From assembly GCF_017640745.1 (NCBI RefSeq), contig NZ_JAEPQA010000012.1, forward strand, positions 62,001 to 126,000: a stretch of DNA of 64,000 bases, written 5' to 3'. Position numbers and translations under genes: made by a program. Below, one piece after another: positions 7,026 through 26,688 of the stretch. Every line of letters starts with the position of its first letter. Position 1 is the first letter of the stretch. Under the pieces are notes generated by a model. The model ran no database searches. It worked only from the letters and a program-made list of their open reading frames with translations, and was not told the DNA's origin. The stretch comes from Nisaea sp. (GTDB lineage: Bacteria; Pseudomonadota; Alphaproteobacteria; Thalassobaculales; Thalassobaculaceae).

Positions 7026-7784
7026 ATGACAAGCATTCTTCAAGTCAAGAACGTCAATAAGAGCTTTGGCGGTCTGAAGGCCCTGAACAACGTCGAACTC
7101 TCGGTCGAGCAAGGCACGGTGCACGCGATCATCGGCCCGAACGGCGCCGGAAAGTCGACGCTGCTGAACTGCTTCGTCGGCCGTCTGACGCCCGACACGG
7201 GCACGGTGGATTTCGACGGCACGTCCCTGCTCGGCAAGCAGCCGCACGAGATCAACCAGGTCGGCGTTTCCCGGGTGTTCCAGACGCCGGAGATTTTCGG
7301 CGATCTCAGCCTGGTCGAGAACGTCATGATCCCGACGCTCGCGCGGCGGGACGGCGCCTTCAAGCTCAACCCCTGGCAGCGGGTTGACAGCATCGCCGAG
7401 GTCCGCGAGAAGGCCGAGCATCTGCTGGCGGACGTCGATCTGCAGGACAAGAAGGACATGATCGCGAACTCTCTCTCGCGCGGCGACAAGCGGCGTCTGG
7501 AGCTCGCCATGTGCCTGGTCCAGGATCCGAAGCTGCTGCTGCTGGACGAGCCGACCGCGGGGATGTCCCGTGCCGATACCAACAAGACCATCGACCTGCT
7601 GAAGCGGATCGGTGAGCGCGGCATCACCAAGATCGTGATCGAGCACGACATGCATGTCGTGTTCTCGCTCGCCAACAAGATTTCCGTCATGGCCCAGGGC
7701 ACCGTGATCGCCGAGGGCAAGCCGGAACAGATCAAAGGCGATCCGCGCGTCCAGGAAGCCTATCTCGGGGGAGCCCATCTATGA
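7026..7784 (+). CDS. ABC transporter ATP-binding protein (LivG-like)
   Basis: 252 residues from the ATG at 7026 (GGCAAG upstream); upstream in-frame codons belong to the previous gene's tail. Walker A is GPNGAGKST at about residues 38-46. The signature is LSRGDKRRLE, Walker B is LLLLDEPTAGM, and the switch His is in IEHDM. The R-G-D-K-R form of the signature, in place of S-G-Q-Q, is usual for LivG-type subunits. It overlaps the next ATPase gene by four bases (ATGA). Together the two ATPases power the importer as a heterodimer. Confidence 0.93.
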   Translation: MTSILQVKNVNKSFGGLKALNNVELSVEQGTVHAIIGPNGAGKSTLLNCFVGRLTPDTGTVDFDGTSLLGKQPHEINQVGVSRVFQTPEIFGDLSLVENVMIPTLARRDGAFKLNPWQRVDSIAEVREKAEHLLADVDLQDKKDMIANSLSRGDKRRLELAMCLVQDPKLLLLDEPTAGMSRADTNKTIDLLKRIGERGITKIVIEHDMHVVFSLANKISVMAQGTVIAEGKPEQIKGDPRVQEAYLGGAHL

Positions 7785-8566
7785 GCCAGGAAACCCTCCT
7801 CAAGCAGCCGGAAGACCGCATGGTCAAGCCGGAGAACCCGATCAAGAACGTCGGGACACCGTCAGCCTATTTCTCCTGCTGGGGCATGCAGGCCTATTAC
7901 GGCGAGAGCTACATCGTTCAGGATGTCAGCTTCAACATCCACGAGGGCGAGATCGTCGCCTTGCTCGGCCGGAACGGTGCCGGCAAGACCTCGACGCTCC
8001 GCACCATCGCCCGGATGGCCAACCCGGAACTGCAGCACGGCGAGATCTGGCTCGACCACAAGCCGTTGCACCGCATGAAGGATTTCGAGGCGGCGCAGAA
8101 CGGTGTCGGCTTGGTGCCCGAAGACCGGCGTATCATTCCGGGCCTCACGGTCGAGGAAAACCTGGAGCTTGCGCAGATCCACGGCCCGCGCGGCTGGGAG
8201 ATCGAGCGGCTCTACGAGCATTTCCCGCGCCTCGCGGAACGCCGCAATCAGGAAGGCGTGACCATGTCCGGCGGCGAGCAGCAGATGCTGGCCGTCGCCC
8301 GCGCGCTCGCCCGGGATGTGAAGCTGCTGCTGCTGGACGAACCCTATGAAGGTCTCGCACCGGTCATCGTGCGCGAGATCGAGAAGATCCTCGAAGAGAT
8401 CAAGACGCTCGGGCTCACCACCATTATCGTCGAACAGAACGCCATCGCCGCGCTTCATCTCGCGGACCGCGCCCTGATCCTCGATATGGGCCAGGTCGTC
8501 TTTGATGGCACCGCTCAAGAAGTGCTGGATGACGAGGCACTCCGTCAGGAGTATCTCGCGATCTAA
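7781..8566 (+). CDS. ABC transporter ATP-binding protein (LivF-like) with N-terminal extension
   Basis: 261 residues. Walker A GRNGAGKTS is near residues 65-73, the signature MSGGEQQMLAVARAL near 165, Walker B LLLLDEPYEGLAP, and the switch His is replaced by Gln in VEQNA, as usual for LivF-type subunits. The first ~27 residues (TLLKQPEDRM...) precede the normal LivF start and add a polar leader. The four-base ATGA overlap with the LivG-like gene fixes this start. It is the last gene of the importer operon and is followed by a strong terminator at 8605. Confidence 0.92.
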   Translation: MSQETLLKQPEDRMVKPENPIKNVGTPSAYFSCWGMQAYYGESYIVQDVSFNIHEGEIVALLGRNGAGKTSTLRTIARMANPELQHGEIWLDHKPLHRMKDFEAAQNGVGLVPEDRRIIPGLTVEENLELAQIHGPRGWEIERLYEHFPRLAERRNQEGVTMSGGEQQMLAVARALARDVKLLLLDEPYEGLAPVIVREIEKILEEIKTLGLTTIIVEQNAIAALHLADRALILDMGQVVFDGTAQEVLDDEALRQEYLAI

Positions 8567-20871: not shown

Positions 20872-21231
20872 ATGTTCGATAAAGCGTTCGATAGATTCGT
20901 CAATGGCCTTGCCCTTATTGGTTTGGTTATAGCTTCCTTGGCTGTACAAACTGCTTGGGATTGGATCGAAGCCAACGGCTATGTTGTGTATGTCGTTTGT
21001 TCCGGCCTCCTTCTTGTGGAGGTTATCGTTCTGATCCTGTGTGGCCGGAAGGCTGCATTGACGATCCTGATCGCGGGGGCGGTTCTTTTTTTCACGATCT
21101 TCGGAACGGACCTGTTTAGGGGGGGATTCTCCGAACACGCCAATGCAGGTATTGCTACCGCTCTTCTTCTAATATCCGTTGTCGGGATCGGGTATCTGAC
21201 GGATCGATTTAATAAAAACAAAAGATCCTAA
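20872..21231 (+). CDS. Small four-helix membrane protein of unknown function
   Basis: 119 residues with four hydrophobic segments at about 12-28, 37-57, 60-80 and 92-108 and a Lys/Arg/Asn-rich end. Codon use is clearly less GC-rich at third positions than in the surrounding enzymes (many AAA, ATT and TTT codons), which suggests acquired DNA. The ribosome site before the ATG at 20872 is weak. It ends 8 bases before the decayed dehydrogenase fragment on the opposite strand. No family recognised. Confidence 0.55.
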   Translation: MFDKAFDRFVNGLALIGLVIASLAVQTAWDWIEANGYVVYVVCSGLLLVEVIVLILCGRKAALTILIAGAVLFFTIFGTDLFRGGFSEHANAGIATALLLISVVGIGYLTDRFNKNKRS

Positions 21232-21238
21232 TTTCTCT

Positions 21239-21475
21239 TCATCCCTCCGCCCCAGCGGCGACTCCTGTTCCGTCTCCACCGCCGCCTTCAGTTTCAGAAG
21301 GCCGACATTCCGGTCGCGGACAGTTCCTCCGGCTTTGTCGCCATGGTTGAAATAGATGGGCCCGTCCCTCACGCCCTGCGTGCCCGGGGCGATCAGCTTT
21401 CTGAGCGTTTTGCTCCGCCCTCTCGAAGCCACCACGAACGGTCATCTTGTAAAGCGCCCAAGTTGACGGCCCGAC
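21239..21475 (-). pseudogene. Decayed 3' fragment of a 3-hydroxyacyl-CoA dehydrogenase gene
   Basis: The minus strand encodes a stretch (KTLRKLIAPGTQGV ... RDRNVGLLKLKAAVE) that matches the C-terminus of the intact dehydrogenase at 25505-26473 (ETLEKLIADGKQGV ... RNRDVGLLKLKAAVE). DNA similarity is visible over roughly 235 bases. The match continues upstream only after a change of frame (ALYKM against ALANKM), and the aligned stop is also out of frame, so at least two indels are present. The first ~240 residues are missing. The fragment ends where the HicA-like gene's promoter region begins. Confidence 0.8.
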
Positions 21476-21526
21476 TGCTGGCTGTTGATATTTCTCACGC
21501 ACGTAAAAGTCGCACAAGTCAAATTG

Positions 21527-21560
21527 TTGACATTTGTAAACACGCAATCCATATTCGGAG
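21527..21560 (+). promoter_or_regulatory. Putative promoter and ribosome site of the HicA-like/HTH gene pair
   Basis: TTGACA (21527-21532) is a perfect -35 box; CATATT (21550-21555) is a 4-of-6 -10 box at 17-base spacing. GGAG (21557-21560) stands 6 bases before the ATG at 21567. CAAAT/ATTTG arms (21520-21524 and 21532-21536) flank the -35 and could be an operator for the HTH partner. The -10 lies so near the start codon that the GGAG might not be transcribed, so another start of transcription is possible. Confidence 0.45.
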
Positions 21561-21566
21561 CACGTA

Positions 21567-21797
21567 ATGACCCGCCCGCGCCATCCGGACAAAGAGGTCG
21601 AGGCGGCGGTCCGGCAGGCTGAGGCGCTGGGCTGGACCTGGAGGCCGCAGGGGCACTGGGGACGGCTCTATTGTCCCCAGCATGACCGCGAGGGTTGCCA
21701 GATCGGGGTCAATGGAACGCCGCGGAATGCGGGCAATCACGCGCGGCAGATCTTGCGGGCGATCAACCGGTGTCCGCACGGGGCCGGGGGAGAGTGA
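21567..21797 (+). CDS. HicA-like small protein, candidate toxin of a two-gene module
   Basis: 76 residues, basic. The order beta-alpha-Gly-His-Trp-Gly-Arg (AEALGWTWRPQGHWGRLYCPQ) followed by NAGNHARQILRAI resembles the compact dsRBD-like fold of HicA mRNA interferases. In these a conserved His lies in the first Gly-His motif and a second basic block follows. Two cysteines (YCPQH, EGCQI) and a third near the end are additional. The gene is immediately upstream of, and overlaps by one base (TGATG), an HTH-containing gene, the order expected for hicA-hicB. Toxicity is not shown by sequence. Confidence 0.55.
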   Translation: MTRPRHPDKEVEAAVRQAEALGWTWRPQGHWGRLYCPQHDREGCQIGVNGTPRNAGNHARQILRAINRCPHGAGGE

Positions 21798-22336
21798 TGA
21801 TGGAGACGTTTGAGTTCAGCGTGATCGCCTCCGGGCTGGACCCGGCGGCGGAGGATTTCGAGGCGCGGTTCTACGACCATGGCTGCGACGACGCGCTGGT
21901 CTCGTTCCAGAAGGGCCATGTCATCGTCGATTTCGCGCGCGAGGCGGAGAGCTTCGGCGATGCCGTCGCCTCGGCGCTGGAGAATGTCGCCGCGACCGGC
22001 GCGCGGATCGACCGGCTGGAGCCGGACCCGCTGGTCAGCCTCTCCGACATCGCGAAACGCGCCGAGATGACGCGGGCGGCAATCTCCAACTATTACCGGG
22101 GCTGCCGGGGCGAGGGCTTTCCGCCGCCAGTGGCGCGCGTGACCTCGGACAGTCCGCTCTGGGAATGGGCGACGGTCGCCCGCTGGCTCGCCTGCAACGG
22201 CAAGCTCGCCCCCTCGGTCGCGGTCGAGGCGGAACTGGTCCGGCAGGCCAATCTCGCCGTCGCGGGCGGCGAGGTGCATATCGGGCCGATGCTGCGGCAG
22301 CGGGCGACGGAATACGAAGAGACACTCTGCGCCTGA
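21797..22336 (+). CDS. HicB-like N-domain plus HTH protein, candidate antitoxin/autoregulator
   Basis: 179 residues from the ATG at 21797, which overlaps the stop of the HicA-like gene. The N-terminal ~85 residues (FEFSVIASGLDP, then a GCDDALVSFQKGHVIVDFARE block) form an alpha/beta domain reminiscent of HicB-type partial folds. Residues ~85-140 form an HTH with DIAKRAEMTRAAISNYYRG and a wing-like PLWEWATVARWL. The C-terminal ~35 residues are helical. DNA binding with self-repression and neutralisation of the upstream protein are inferred from the domain plan and coupling. Confidence 0.55.
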   Translation: MMETFEFSVIASGLDPAAEDFEARFYDHGCDDALVSFQKGHVIVDFAREAESFGDAVASALENVAATGARIDRLEPDPLVSLSDIAKRAEMTRAAISNYYRGCRGEGFPPPVARVTSDSPLWEWATVARWLACNGKLAPSVAVEAELVRQANLAVAGGEVHIGPMLRQRATEYEETLCA

Positions 22337-22351
22337 GGGCGCTCATGCCGC

Positions 22352-23959
22352 TCACCCCGCCGCAGCATTGATCATTTCCGCCGCCTTCTCGGCGATCATG
22401 ATCGTCGGCGCGTTCGTGTTGCCCGTGGTCAGATACGGCATCACCGACGCATCCGCGACCCTGAGCCCCTCGATGCCGCGGACCCGGAGCTCCGGGTCGA
22501 CGACCGCCAGCGGGTCGATCCCCATCTTGCAGGTACCGACCGGGTGGTAGAGCGTGGTGCCGCGCTCCCGGGCGAACTCAGCGAGCGCGGCCTCGTCCGC
22601 CGCCTCCGCGCCCGGCCAGAGTTCCGCCGCGCTGTGGCGTGCGAGCGACGGCGCGGCGAAGATCCGGCGCACATGCGCCATGCCGGCGAGCATCACGCGG
22701 AGGTCGTCGCGGTCGGAGAGGTAGTTCGGTTTGATGCGCGGCGGCGCCGTCGGATCCGGGCTCGCGGCCATCACGGTGCCGCGGCTGGAGGGGCGGGTCG
22801 GGCAGATCACCGTCGCCATGCCGGGCGCGCGCTCCAGCGCCAGCGGCTTGTCCGGATCGTAGCTGGCCGGGGTGAAGAGGAGCTGCAGGTCCGGGCTCTC
22901 CAGGCCCTCGCGGCTGCGGCAGAACACCATCGCGCTGGTCACGCCGAAGGTCAGCGCGCCGTTGCCGAAGAGGGCGAAGCGGCCGATCTCGCGCAGCACC
23001 CGCCAGCCGCGGGAGAGCTGGTTCATCGAGATCGCGTCCCTGACCCGGTGGGTGATGCGCGTGACGTAATGGTCGGAGAGGTTGGCGCCGACGCCCGGCA
23101 GGTCCTGCACCACCGGCAGCCCGAGGCTCGCGAGATGGCCGGCTGGGCCTATGCCGGAGAGCTGAAGGAGCTGCGGCGAATTGACGGCGCCGCCGGAGAG
23201 CACCACCTCGCACGCGGCTTTGACCGCGACCTCCTGGCCGTGGCGGCGGAACACCAGCCCGGTGCAGCGGCGTCCCTCGAAACTGAGCTTCTGCACCAGG
23301 GCTTCGGTCTCGACCCGGAGGTTGGGGCGTTTGCGCGCCTCGGCGAGGAAGGTGCGGGCGGTCGAGGCGCGCCAGCGGCCGCGACGGGTCATCTGCGAAT
23401 AGGCGACGCCCTCCTGGGCCGAGCCGTTGTAATCCGGGTTGAAGGCGAAACCGGCCTCCTCTGCCGCCCGCACGAAGGCATGGGTCAGCGGCAGGATGGT
23501 GCGGTAATCCTCGACCGGCATCGGGCCGCCCCGCCCGCGGATCTCGTCCTCGCCCTTTTCGTAGCGCTCGGAGCGGCGGAAGAGGGGCAGTACCTCCTCG
23601 AAGCTCCAGCCCCGGCAGCCGAGCTGCGCCCAGCCGTCATAGTCGGCCGGGTTGCCGCGCACATAGAGCATGCCGTTGATCGAGTGCGAGCCGCCGAGCA
23701 CGCGGCCGCGCGGCCAGTGGATCGCCCGTCCGGCCGTGCCTTCCTCCGGCTCGCTCGCATAGTTCCAGTTGACGGCCGGATTGTAGAGCAGGCTCTTCAC
23801 GCCGGCCGGAATGTGAATCAGCGGATGGCGGTCCGGCGGCCCGGCCTCGAGCAGCAGGACCCTCGCCCCGGTCTCGCTGAGCCGGCTCGCGACGACGCAG
23901 CCGGCCGAGCCCGCACCGACCACGACATAATCCGTTTCCAGAGTCTCCACGCGCATCAT
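22352..23959 (-). CDS. GMC-family FAD oxidoreductase (choline dehydrogenase-like)
   Basis: 535 residues. The dinucleotide motif [19 protein letters not shown] lies at about 10-28, the first GMC signature [18 protein letters not shown] near 85, the second signature [18 protein letters not shown] near 255, and the catalytic His in HPVGTCKMG near 475. It oxidises an alcohol to an aldehyde with FAD; whether the substrate is choline, an aliphatic alcohol or a polyol is not visible. It is the last gene of a same-strand set with an aminotransferase (48-base gap) and a 3-hydroxyacyl-CoA dehydrogenase. It is convergent with the HTH gene. Confidence 0.92.
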
Positions 23960-25504: not shown

Positions 25505-26473
25505 TCACCCCTTCGGCCGGAGCGGCAGTTCCTCTTCGACCTTCTCCACCGCCGCCTTCAGCTTCAGGAGCCCGACATCGCGGTTGCGGAACAGTTCCTC
25601 CGGCTTCATGTCGCCATAGTCGAAATAGCCGGAGCCGTTCATCACGCCCTGTTTGCCGTCGGCGATCAGCTTTTCCAGCGTCTCGCTTTTCCCCTTCACC
25701 TCGGGCGGGATGTACATCTTGTTGGCGAGCGCGCGGCGGCTCATGTCGAGGCCGGTGAAGTCCGCCTTCATCAGCGCGCCCATGGTCGCCATGCGGAGCG
25801 CGAGGCCATACTTGATCGAAGTGTCGATCGCCTCGGCATCGGCATAGCCCTCGTCGAGCAGGCGGGTGATCTCCAGCGTCATCGCCGCCTGCAGGCGGTT
25901 GGCGACATAGCCGGGCACGAAACGCTCGAACAGCACCGGCTTCTTGCCGATCGCCGCGTAATGGTCGCGCACGGCCTCCAGGATCTTGCGGTCGGTCTCC
26001 GGCCCGCCGGCGATATCGACCAGGTCGATGATGTAGGGCGGGGTGTACCAGTGGGTGATGATGAAGCGGCTCTGCAGGGACGCCGGCGCGAGCGGGAAGG
26101 CGTCGAGATAGGAGGTGTTGCTGGCGATGATCGCCGCCGCCGGGGCCGCGCTCTCTAGCTCGGCATAGACCGTCGTCTTCACCTCGCGGTTCTCGACCAC
26201 CGCCTCGACGATGAAATCGGCGTCCGCGACCGCGTCCTTCAGGGTCGCGACCGGCGTGATCCGGGCGAGGATCGCCGCCGTCTCCGACTTTGCGACACTA
26301 CCGCCGGCGACGAGGGTCTCAAGCGCGCTGCCGATCAGCTCCATGCCGGTCTTCAGCTGGCGTTCGCTGATGTCGGTCATCTTCACCGGATGTCCGGCGA
26401 TCGCGTGCACGAGGGCGAGCCCGTGTCCCATCAGTCCCGCGCCGATGATGGCGACCTTGCTTGTGCTGTCCAT
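25505..26473 (-). CDS. 3-hydroxyacyl-CoA dehydrogenase-family protein
   Basis: 322 residues from the ATG at 26473, which has GGGGAGGAA upstream; an earlier in-frame ATG lacks one. NAD motif: VAIIGAGLMGHGLA. The usual catalytic block (H-F-F-N-P-V) is changed to THWYTPPYIIDLVD, keeping His and Pro. The C-terminal domain ends GYFDYGD ... GLLKLKAAVE. Substrates may be hydroxyacyl-CoAs or free hydroxyacids such as gulonate or carnitine, which this subfamily also uses. A broken second copy of its 3' end stands at 21239-21475. It is the first gene of the leftward catabolic set. Confidence 0.85.
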   Translation of the reverse strand: MDSTSKVAIIGAGLMGHGLALVHAIAGHPVKMTDISERQLKTGMELIGSALETLVAGGSVAKSETAAILARITPVATLKDAVADADFIVEAVVENREVKTTVYAELESAAPAAAIIASNTSYLDAFPLAPASLQSRFIITHWYTPPYIIDLVDIAGGPETDRKILEAVRDHYAAIGKKPVLFERFVPGYVANRLQAAMTLEITRLLDEGYADAEAIDTSIKYGLALRMATMGALMKADFTGLDMSRRALANKMYIPPEVKGKSETLEKLIADGKQGVMNGSGYFDYGDMKPEELFRNRDVGLLKLKAAVEKVEEELPLRPKG

Positions 26474-26688
26474 TCCGCGTTCCTCCCCGGATGCCGTCAT
26501 TCCTTTGTTGGCAAGGAGGCTAGCAAAGCCAGATGGCGACGATTGATGAAGATTTGGCAGCAGGGCGGGGCAGAGCTGCGGAGAGTGGAGAAGTCCGGCA
26601 CCACACTCGTGCCTGCGCGTTGCTTTACGGCGCCTGTGCGGTGGCTCACACTCTTGGAAAAAGAGAATAATCCCAGGGAGACGTCGCC

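What the first reader, a model, noticed from the sequence alone, without database searches (positions are those of the whole stretch)
21567..22336. Candidate HicA-like toxin with an HTH-fused antitoxin
A 76-residue basic protein with the HicA-like GHWGR and NHARQI blocks is coupled by a one-base overlap to a 179-residue protein that joins an alpha/beta N-domain to an HTH. A perfect TTGACA lies just upstream. The domain plan differs from textbook HicB, and the pair sits beside a truncated gene in an accessory patch, as mobile toxin-antitoxin modules often do.
Basis: partly seen in the sequence, partly recalled or inferred. Interest (0 to 1): 0.6.

Follow-up and report, generated by a model that had tools for sequence, protein, structure and literature searches.

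The report
HicA-like toxin with non-HicB partner
This marine bacterium carries a small mobile two-gene unit, found from cyanobacteria to E. coli phage-plasmids, that looks like a toxin-antitoxin pair: a HicA-like protein and an acidic DNA-binding partner built unlike the textbook HicB antitoxin, behind a control site conserved across phyla; it is already catalogued as a phage-defence candidate but I found no report that anyone has tested it.

Summary
The two genes are real and under purifying selection. ORF1 (76 aa, pI 9.6) and ORF2 (179 aa, probably 178; pI 4.6) form a widespread unit: all 61 loci with ORF1 have ORF2 directly downstream, while ORF2 also occurs alone. PADLOC lists both as candidate defence system PDC-M06, and a phage homologue is annotated HicA/HicB, so the family is not new. 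The HicA reading of ORF1 is plausible but below family thresholds: alpha-beta-beta-beta-alpha order, an invariant G-H where HicA has its catalytic G-S-H, profile similarity above shuffled controls, but no Pfam HicA match. HTH-bearing HicB is textbook; what differs is the N-domain, predicted ferredoxin-like (beta-alpha-beta-beta-alpha-beta) instead of partial RNase H, followed by a MerR/AlpA-type winged HTH. New here: a 16-bp dyad, GTTGWCA-NN-TGWCAAC, on the -35 box of 46 of 53 loci (2 of 2480 control stretches) and unique in this genome; and a ligand swap in ORF1 (C36/C44/C69/H71, or a loop Cys/His replacing H71) that predicts a zinc site. Best explanation: an autorepressed, mobile type II toxin-antitoxin module. 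Toxicity, RNase activity, neutralisation and defence are untested. The 'one-base overlap' comes from a one-base insertion absent from seven relatives.

The parts
21526..21541 (+). Predicted operator, 16-bp dyad GTTGACATTTGTAAAC (family consensus GTTGWCA-NN-TGWCAAC), overlapping the -35 box
   Evidence: 46 of 53 ORF1 loci have it (<=2 mismatches) upstream against 2 of 2480 control stretches; only copy within 1 mismatch in the 4.5-Mb genome
21527..21555 (+). Sigma-70-like promoter TTGACA-17-CATATT
   Evidence: conserved in close relatives
21567..21797 (+). ORF1, 76-aa basic HicA-like protein, candidate toxin; invariant G22 W23 H30 C36 A59 C69 in the family; its last residues are altered by a one-base insertion relative to relatives
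   Evidence: fold of relative L031; profile comparison; PADLOC PDC-M06A E=1.3e-20
21797..22336 (+). ORF2, 179-aa (more likely 178 aa from 21800) acidic candidate antitoxin and autorepressor
   Evidence: PADLOC PDC-M06B E=1.1e-25; phrog_2620 E=2.6e-35
21803..22030 (+). ORF2 N-terminal ferredoxin-like domain (residues ~3-78), net charge -12
   Evidence: AlphaFold model pLDDT 94, strand/helix order E-H-E-E-H-E; structural matches to HMA/ACT/Lrp domains Z 6-8; charge
22028..22201 (+). ORF2 MerR/AlpA/terminase-type winged HTH (residues ~78-135)
22211..22324 (+). ORF2 two C-terminal helices (residues 139-156, 163-176), possible dimerisation element
   Evidence: helices predicted; the role is inference
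21239..21414 (-). Remnant of the 3' end of a 3-hydroxyacyl-CoA-dehydrogenase-like gene (intact copy 25505-26500), marks the accessory patch
   Evidence: 78% identity to 25505-25687

Best explanation
A mobile, autorepressed type II toxin-antitoxin operon. ORF1 is a HicA-like (dsRBD-fold) protein that probably cleaves or blocks mRNA through its invariant His30 once free, and carries a predicted structural zinc site tying the beta2-beta3 loop to the end of helix 2 (C36, C44, C69, H71). ORF2 neutralises it, most likely by docking its acidic ferredoxin-like domain on the basic toxin, and its winged HTH, as a dimer, binds the GTTGWCA-NN-TGWCAAC dyad on the -35 box so that excess antitoxin or complex shuts the operon. 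Loss or inhibition of ORF2 (for example on phage infection or loss of the element) would free ORF1 and stop growth. Shown by computation: gene pair, linkage, conservation, operator, domain order, charge. Inferred: toxicity, RNase chemistry, zinc, neutralisation, DNA binding, biological role.
For: ORF1 never without ORF2 (61 of 61 loci) while ORF2 occurs alone (L007, L098); 6 of 289 class genomes carry ORF1, all six with ORF2 next to it. Operator in 46/53 loci vs 2/2480 control stretches, across proteobacteria, cyanobacteria and actinobacteria; sole copy in this genome. Basic toxin pI 9.6, acidic partner pI 4.6. alpha-beta-beta-beta-alpha in relative L031; invariant G-H in register with HicA G-S-H, profile score 20.6 vs shuffles 8.9+-2.0 (max 14.7 of 150) and reversed profiles 12.4-13.0. 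On phages and phage-plasmids: SSU5, Cyrano, Horus, 213 plasmid records, 110 of 5426 E. coli genomes, all on plasmids. Cyrano homologues are transcribed 30x and 14x above prophage background in the lysogen (PMC9928086 Table 1). PADLOC PDC-M06A/B. ORF1-ORF2 distances correlate (Mantel r 0.73, permutation max 0.20). Patchy in the genus.
Against: No ORF1 family member reaches the Pfam HicA model (best E=3); hhalign probability is only 24%. The structural second look tested only the ORF2 part of the fused model, so ORF1's fold was never matched to a solved HicA. pTM 0.65 gives no reliable interface. The correlation of ORF1 and ORF2 distances is weak among distant pairs (r 0.16). Sampled chromosomal neighbours are mostly housekeeping. 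No toxicity data were found.
Confidence: 0.6

Rival explanations
1. [quoted passage not shown]
For: Gene order toxin-antitoxin, small basic first protein, HTH in the partner; annotation HicA/HicB in OV696614.
Against: ORF2 N-domain is predicted E-H-E-E-H-E with ferredoxin-like matches, in the window protein (pLDDT 94) and in relative L031, not the beta-beta-beta-alpha-beta described for HicB (PMC10865869); no HicB family among the 25 most frequent Pfam matches of 33 ORF2 members; HTH is MerR/AlpA-like and is followed by two more helices.
Confidence: 0.08
2. Regulatory pair without toxicity: ORF2 is an autorepressing AlpA/excisionase-like regulator of a mobile element and ORF1 is a small zinc-containing nucleic-acid-binding cofactor or antirepressor.
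For: phrog_2620 is labelled 'excisionase and transcriptional regulator'; NCBI calls the E. coli homologue AlpA/HTH regulator; winged HTH of Xis/MerR type; toxin activity unproven.
Against: The operator occurs once in the genome, at its own promoter; many copies stand alone in chromosomes among housekeeping genes; basic/acidic charge split and one-sided dependency of ORF1 on ORF2 fit a toxin-antitoxin pair.
Confidence: 0.22
3. Dedicated anti-phage system (PDC-M06) whose ORF2 domain senses an infection signal and whose ORF1 is the abortive effector. This is a role that could coexist with the toxin-antitoxin mechanism.
For: PADLOC candidate models match both genes; lysogeny-expressed on phage-plasmid Cyrano; next to the immunity repressor in phage Horus.
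Against: PADLOC candidates are predictions; no paper in the held library mentions PDC-M06; among 83 neighbour proteins only isolated defence-model matches, mainly one methyltransferase and one PDC-M28B; no sensor ligand known.
Confidence: 0.3

Closest known systems
PADLOC PDC-M06 (A and B)
   Same: Both genes match its models over most of their length (E 1.3e-20 and 1.1e-25)
   Different: A candidate catalogue entry; no experimental description found in the held papers
HicAB type II toxin-antitoxin, Class 3 (Gerdes 2024, PMC10865869; E. coli K-12 HicAB)
   Same: Small basic first protein, alpha-beta-beta-beta-alpha order, conserved G-(S)-H at the start of beta2, downstream HTH-bearing acidic partner, dyad in the promoter
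   Different: ORF1 not recognised by the HicA model and has a conserved Cys/His cluster; ORF2 N-domain is ferredoxin-like, HTH is MerR/AlpA-type with two extra C-terminal helices; not among the 14 published HicA classes as described in the main text
HicA/HicB of SSU5-like phage-plasmid Cyrano (CYRAN_51/CYRAN_50)
   Same: Homologous pair (about 35% and 40% identity), operator GTTGACAGATGTCAAC of the same form, transcribed in lysogens (PMC9928086)
   Different: Zinc ligands C-H-H-C with a loop His and no C-terminal His; 60-nt gap between genes; annotation HicB not supported by the predicted fold
phrog_2620 / AlpA-type regulators and excisionases
   Same: ORF2 matches phrog_2620 (E 2.6e-35) and shares the winged HTH
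   Different: ORF2 adds a ferredoxin-like N-domain and is linked to ORF1; its operator is at its own promoter only

Membership tests
HicA toxin (PF07927) | Recognised by the curated family model | tested here: not met
   0 of 31 members reach the cut-off; one member at E=3
HicA toxin (PF07927) | alpha-beta-beta-beta-alpha order of the dsRBD fold | tested here: met
   Model of relative L031: H8-19 E23-26 E33-38 E53-57 H63-75; order only
HicA toxin (PF07927) | Superposition on a solved HicA | tested here: inconclusive
   Fold searches of the fused model were filled by the ORF2 domain
HicA toxin (PF07927) | Catalytic His in a G-S-H motif at the start of beta2 | tested here: inconclusive
   G-H in register, H30 invariant in 31/31; catalysis untested
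HicA toxin (PF07927) | RNase activity and growth arrest | not testable with these tools
   needs bench work
HicB antitoxin | N-terminal partial RNase H fold (beta-beta-beta-alpha-beta) | tested here: not met
   Window ORF2 model is E-H-E-E-H-E with ferredoxin-like matches
HicB antitoxin | C-terminal HTH or RHH DNA-binding domain | tested here: met
   HTH present but of MerR/AlpA winged type and not terminal
HicB antitoxin | Palindromic operator in its own promoter | tested here: met
   46/53 loci, sole genomic copy here; binding untested
PADLOC PDC-M06 | Matches to both component models | tested here: met
PADLOC PDC-M06 | Anti-phage activity | not testable with these tools
   needs bench work; no paper found
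Type II toxin-antitoxin module | Tight two-gene operon, toxin gene not found without the antitoxin gene | tested here: met
   61 of 61 loci; 6 of 6 in an even class sample
Type II toxin-antitoxin module | Protein-protein neutralisation of a toxic protein | not testable with these tools
   pTM 0.65 of the fused model gives no reliable interface

The most novel reading that the evidence does not exclude
A separate toxin-antitoxin superfamily spread over several phyla by phage-plasmids and accessory hot spots: a zinc-stapled HicA-like RNase whose antitoxin replaced the HicB partial RNase H fold with a ferredoxin-like (ACT/HMA-type) domain, possibly a ligand sensor, fused to a MerR/AlpA-type repressor that has kept essentially one 16-bp operator across phyla.
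Probability: 0.4. Interest if true: 0.62.

Novelty: new variant of a known kind. Interest (0 to 1): 0.45.

Why it matters
If confirmed, an uncharacterised catalogue entry (PDC-M06) and many 'hypothetical protein + HTH regulator' pairs on phage-plasmids become a defined toxin-antitoxin type with a named operator, domain plan and candidate catalytic and zinc residues, all directly testable. An antitoxin with a ferredoxin/ACT-like domain would be an unusual way to neutralise a HicA-like toxin and might tie its release to a small-molecule or infection signal.

Tried and rejected
Pfam and NCBIfam give no family for ORF1 and only weak HTH matches for ORF2. Sequence search of solved structures, single and profile, found nothing significant. 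The fused read-through model of L031 (TAA read as Q so that both proteins form one chain) gave confident domains but pTM 0.65, so no interface is claimed; solved HicA chains do not appear in its fold searches, where the ORF2 domain fills the lists. A first hhalign with six HicA sequences gave only 7.6%; with 41 sequences 24%. A defence-island reading was tested on 83 neighbour proteins and not supported. A DNA hairpin at the operator is no better than shuffles, so the dyad is read as a protein site. Textbook HicB was rejected on fold. Rhodococcus (L047), planctomycete (L045), L025, L035 and phage Horus (L051) lack a recognisable operator copy, so it is not universal.

Full report
What is there. 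The window lies in a draft genome of 4.5 Mb; a contig of the same-genus genome G002 has the same length (550,725 bases) as contig NZ_AUFM01000015.1 of Nisaea denitrificans and holds the same pair, so the host is a Nisaea species, Alphaproteobacteria. Substitutions between close relatives are strongly biased to silent sites in both genes, so both are real genes. The one-base overlap is not the family's arrangement: seven close relatives lack one G of the run near 21783-21790, encode an 81-aa ORF1 and mostly overlap ORF2 by 14 nt. Only the non-conserved tail is changed. Relatives also start ORF2 at the codon equivalent to 21800, giving 178 aa.

Surroundings. The pair sits, convergent, at the 3' end of a GMC oxidoreductase-like gene (22352-23959), next to a 78% remnant of the 3' end of a dehydrogenase gene whose intact copy is at 25505-26500. 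In two sister genomes (G001, G004) the pair is in the same place, but G001 has an extra 352-bp copy of the GMC 3' end on the other side of it, and G004 has a 160-bp copy plus the 119-aa membrane ORF of 20872-21231 in a different order. G003 has no pair anywhere, and G002 carries it on another contig. This is an insertion hot spot, so 'accessory patch' is right.

Distribution. Relatives of ORF1 were found in alpha-, beta- and gammaproteobacteria, cyanobacteria, actinobacteria and a planctomycete plasmid, on SSU5-like phage-plasmids, and in Gordonia phage Horus (genes 53-52, directly after the immunity repressor). In E. coli, 110 of 5426 complete genomes have the Cyrano version, all on plasmids. 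In an even sample of the class, 6 of 289 genomes have ORF1 and all six have ORF2 beside it. Over all loci examined, ORF1 is followed by ORF2 in 61 of 61, whereas ORF2 occurs without ORF1 in L007 and L098. Distances within the two families correlate (Mantel r 0.73, best permutation 0.20), though only weakly among distant pairs (0.16).

Known labels. PADLOC matches both genes to PDC-M06A and PDC-M06B, a candidate defence system. PHROGs matches ORF2 to phrog_2620, 'excisionase and transcriptional regulator'. Phage Cyrano's authors call the pair HicA toxin and putative antitoxin HicB and measured transcription 30- and 14-fold above the prophage background in a lysogenic culture (PMC9928086, Table 1). 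No held paper mentions PDC-M06.

ORF1. The family has invariant G22, W23, H30, C36, A59, C69 and near-invariant H6, T51, P52, H58, R64. The model of relative L031 gives helix-strand-strand-strand-helix with high confidence outside the loop, the order described for HicA (PMC10865869). Profile comparison with 41 HicA domains extracted from related genomes aligns GW...GH with HicA's GW...GSH; its score, 20.6, exceeds 150 column shuffles (8.9 +- 2.0, maximum 14.7) and reversed profiles (12.4-13.0), but the hhalign probability is only 24% and Pfam's HicA model does not recognise the family. HicA-like is therefore a fair description; HicA member is not established. A feature not in HicA as I know it is a Cys/His cluster that changes in a compensated way. 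Short-loop members have C36, C44, C69 and H71; long-loop members lose H71 and gain a loop Cys; phage members lose H71, gain a loop His and change C44 to His. A four-ligand metal site is the natural reading; it is inference, and L047 and L034 are partial exceptions.

ORF2. The window protein was modelled at mean pLDDT 94. Residues 3-78 form strand-helix-strand-strand-helix-strand, with structural matches to HMA, ACT and Lrp-type ferredoxin-like domains (Z 6-8). Residues 78-135 form a winged HTH like MerR regulators and terminase small subunits, and two helices follow. These Z values show a common fold, not ancestry. The N-domain is very acidic (net -12) against a basic ORF1 (pI 9.6). HicB's N-domain is a partial RNase H fold (beta-beta-beta-alpha-beta; PMC10865869), so HicB membership fails on a tested feature, although an HTH in HicB is itself textbook.

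Operator. A 16-bp dyad GTTGWCA-NN-TGWCAAC precedes ORF1, overlapping the -35 box, with at most two mismatches in 46 of 53 loci, against 2 of 2480 equal-length stretches elsewhere in the same loci. The window has GTTGACATTTGTAAAC, one mismatch, and it is the only such site within one mismatch in the whole genome. Two spellings track the ORF1 subfamilies: GTTGACA..TGTCAAC with nearly all short-loop and phage types, GTTGTCA..TGACAAC with long-loop types (the script labelled L032 and L034, long-loop by eye or nearly so, as short). That the same dyad stands before the gene in an E. coli phage-plasmid and in marine alphaproteobacteria argues strongly for autoregulation by the conserved HTH. Many of the 53 loci are closely related (about 14 are Paraburkholderia, Burkholderia or Trinickia), so they are not independent observations.

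Mechanism and verdict. The best-supported account is an autorepressed type II toxin-antitoxin operon carried by mobile elements. Steps shown by computation are pair integrity, linkage, operator, domain order and charge. Toxicity, cleavage, zinc, neutralisation and role in defence or addiction are inferred. The family is already catalogued, so this is a new variant of a known kind, not a new category; what this work adds is the non-HicB antitoxin plan, the cross-phylum operator and the ligand swap.

Noticed in passing
window 21239-21414 and 22352-22700; L081, L082, L085: The 3' end of the GMC oxidoreductase-like gene is an insertion hot spot in Nisaea: sister genomes carry extra diverged copies of the 3' ends of GMC (352 bp, 160 bp) or of the dehydrogenase around inserted accessory genes, as if cassettes bring their own target-gene end.
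   Followed up: partly
window 20872-21231: A 119-aa membrane-protein ORF of unknown family that in sister genome G004 (reverse complement of L082, about 7733-8257) lies on the other side of the pair, next to a GMC fragment; it moves within the same hot spot.
   Followed up: partly
L051 2476-2787 and 2857-3444 (Gordonia phage Horus genes 53 and 52): A divergent copy of the pair, annotated as hypothetical and HTH protein, directly downstream of the immunity repressor, so probably expressed in lysogeny; it lacks the dyad operator.
   Followed up: partly
L098 1501-2067 and 2901-3338: Two ORF2-like genes with no ORF1 model match, separated by a 233-aa membrane-protein ORF; possible solitary antitoxins or a swapped partner.
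   Followed up: no
L044 4756-7504 (Polymorphobacter plasmid): The pair is followed, with a one-base overlap, by a large AAA ATPase gene and lies beside two tyrosine recombinases and HipA genes; possibly an expanded version of the module.
   Followed up: no
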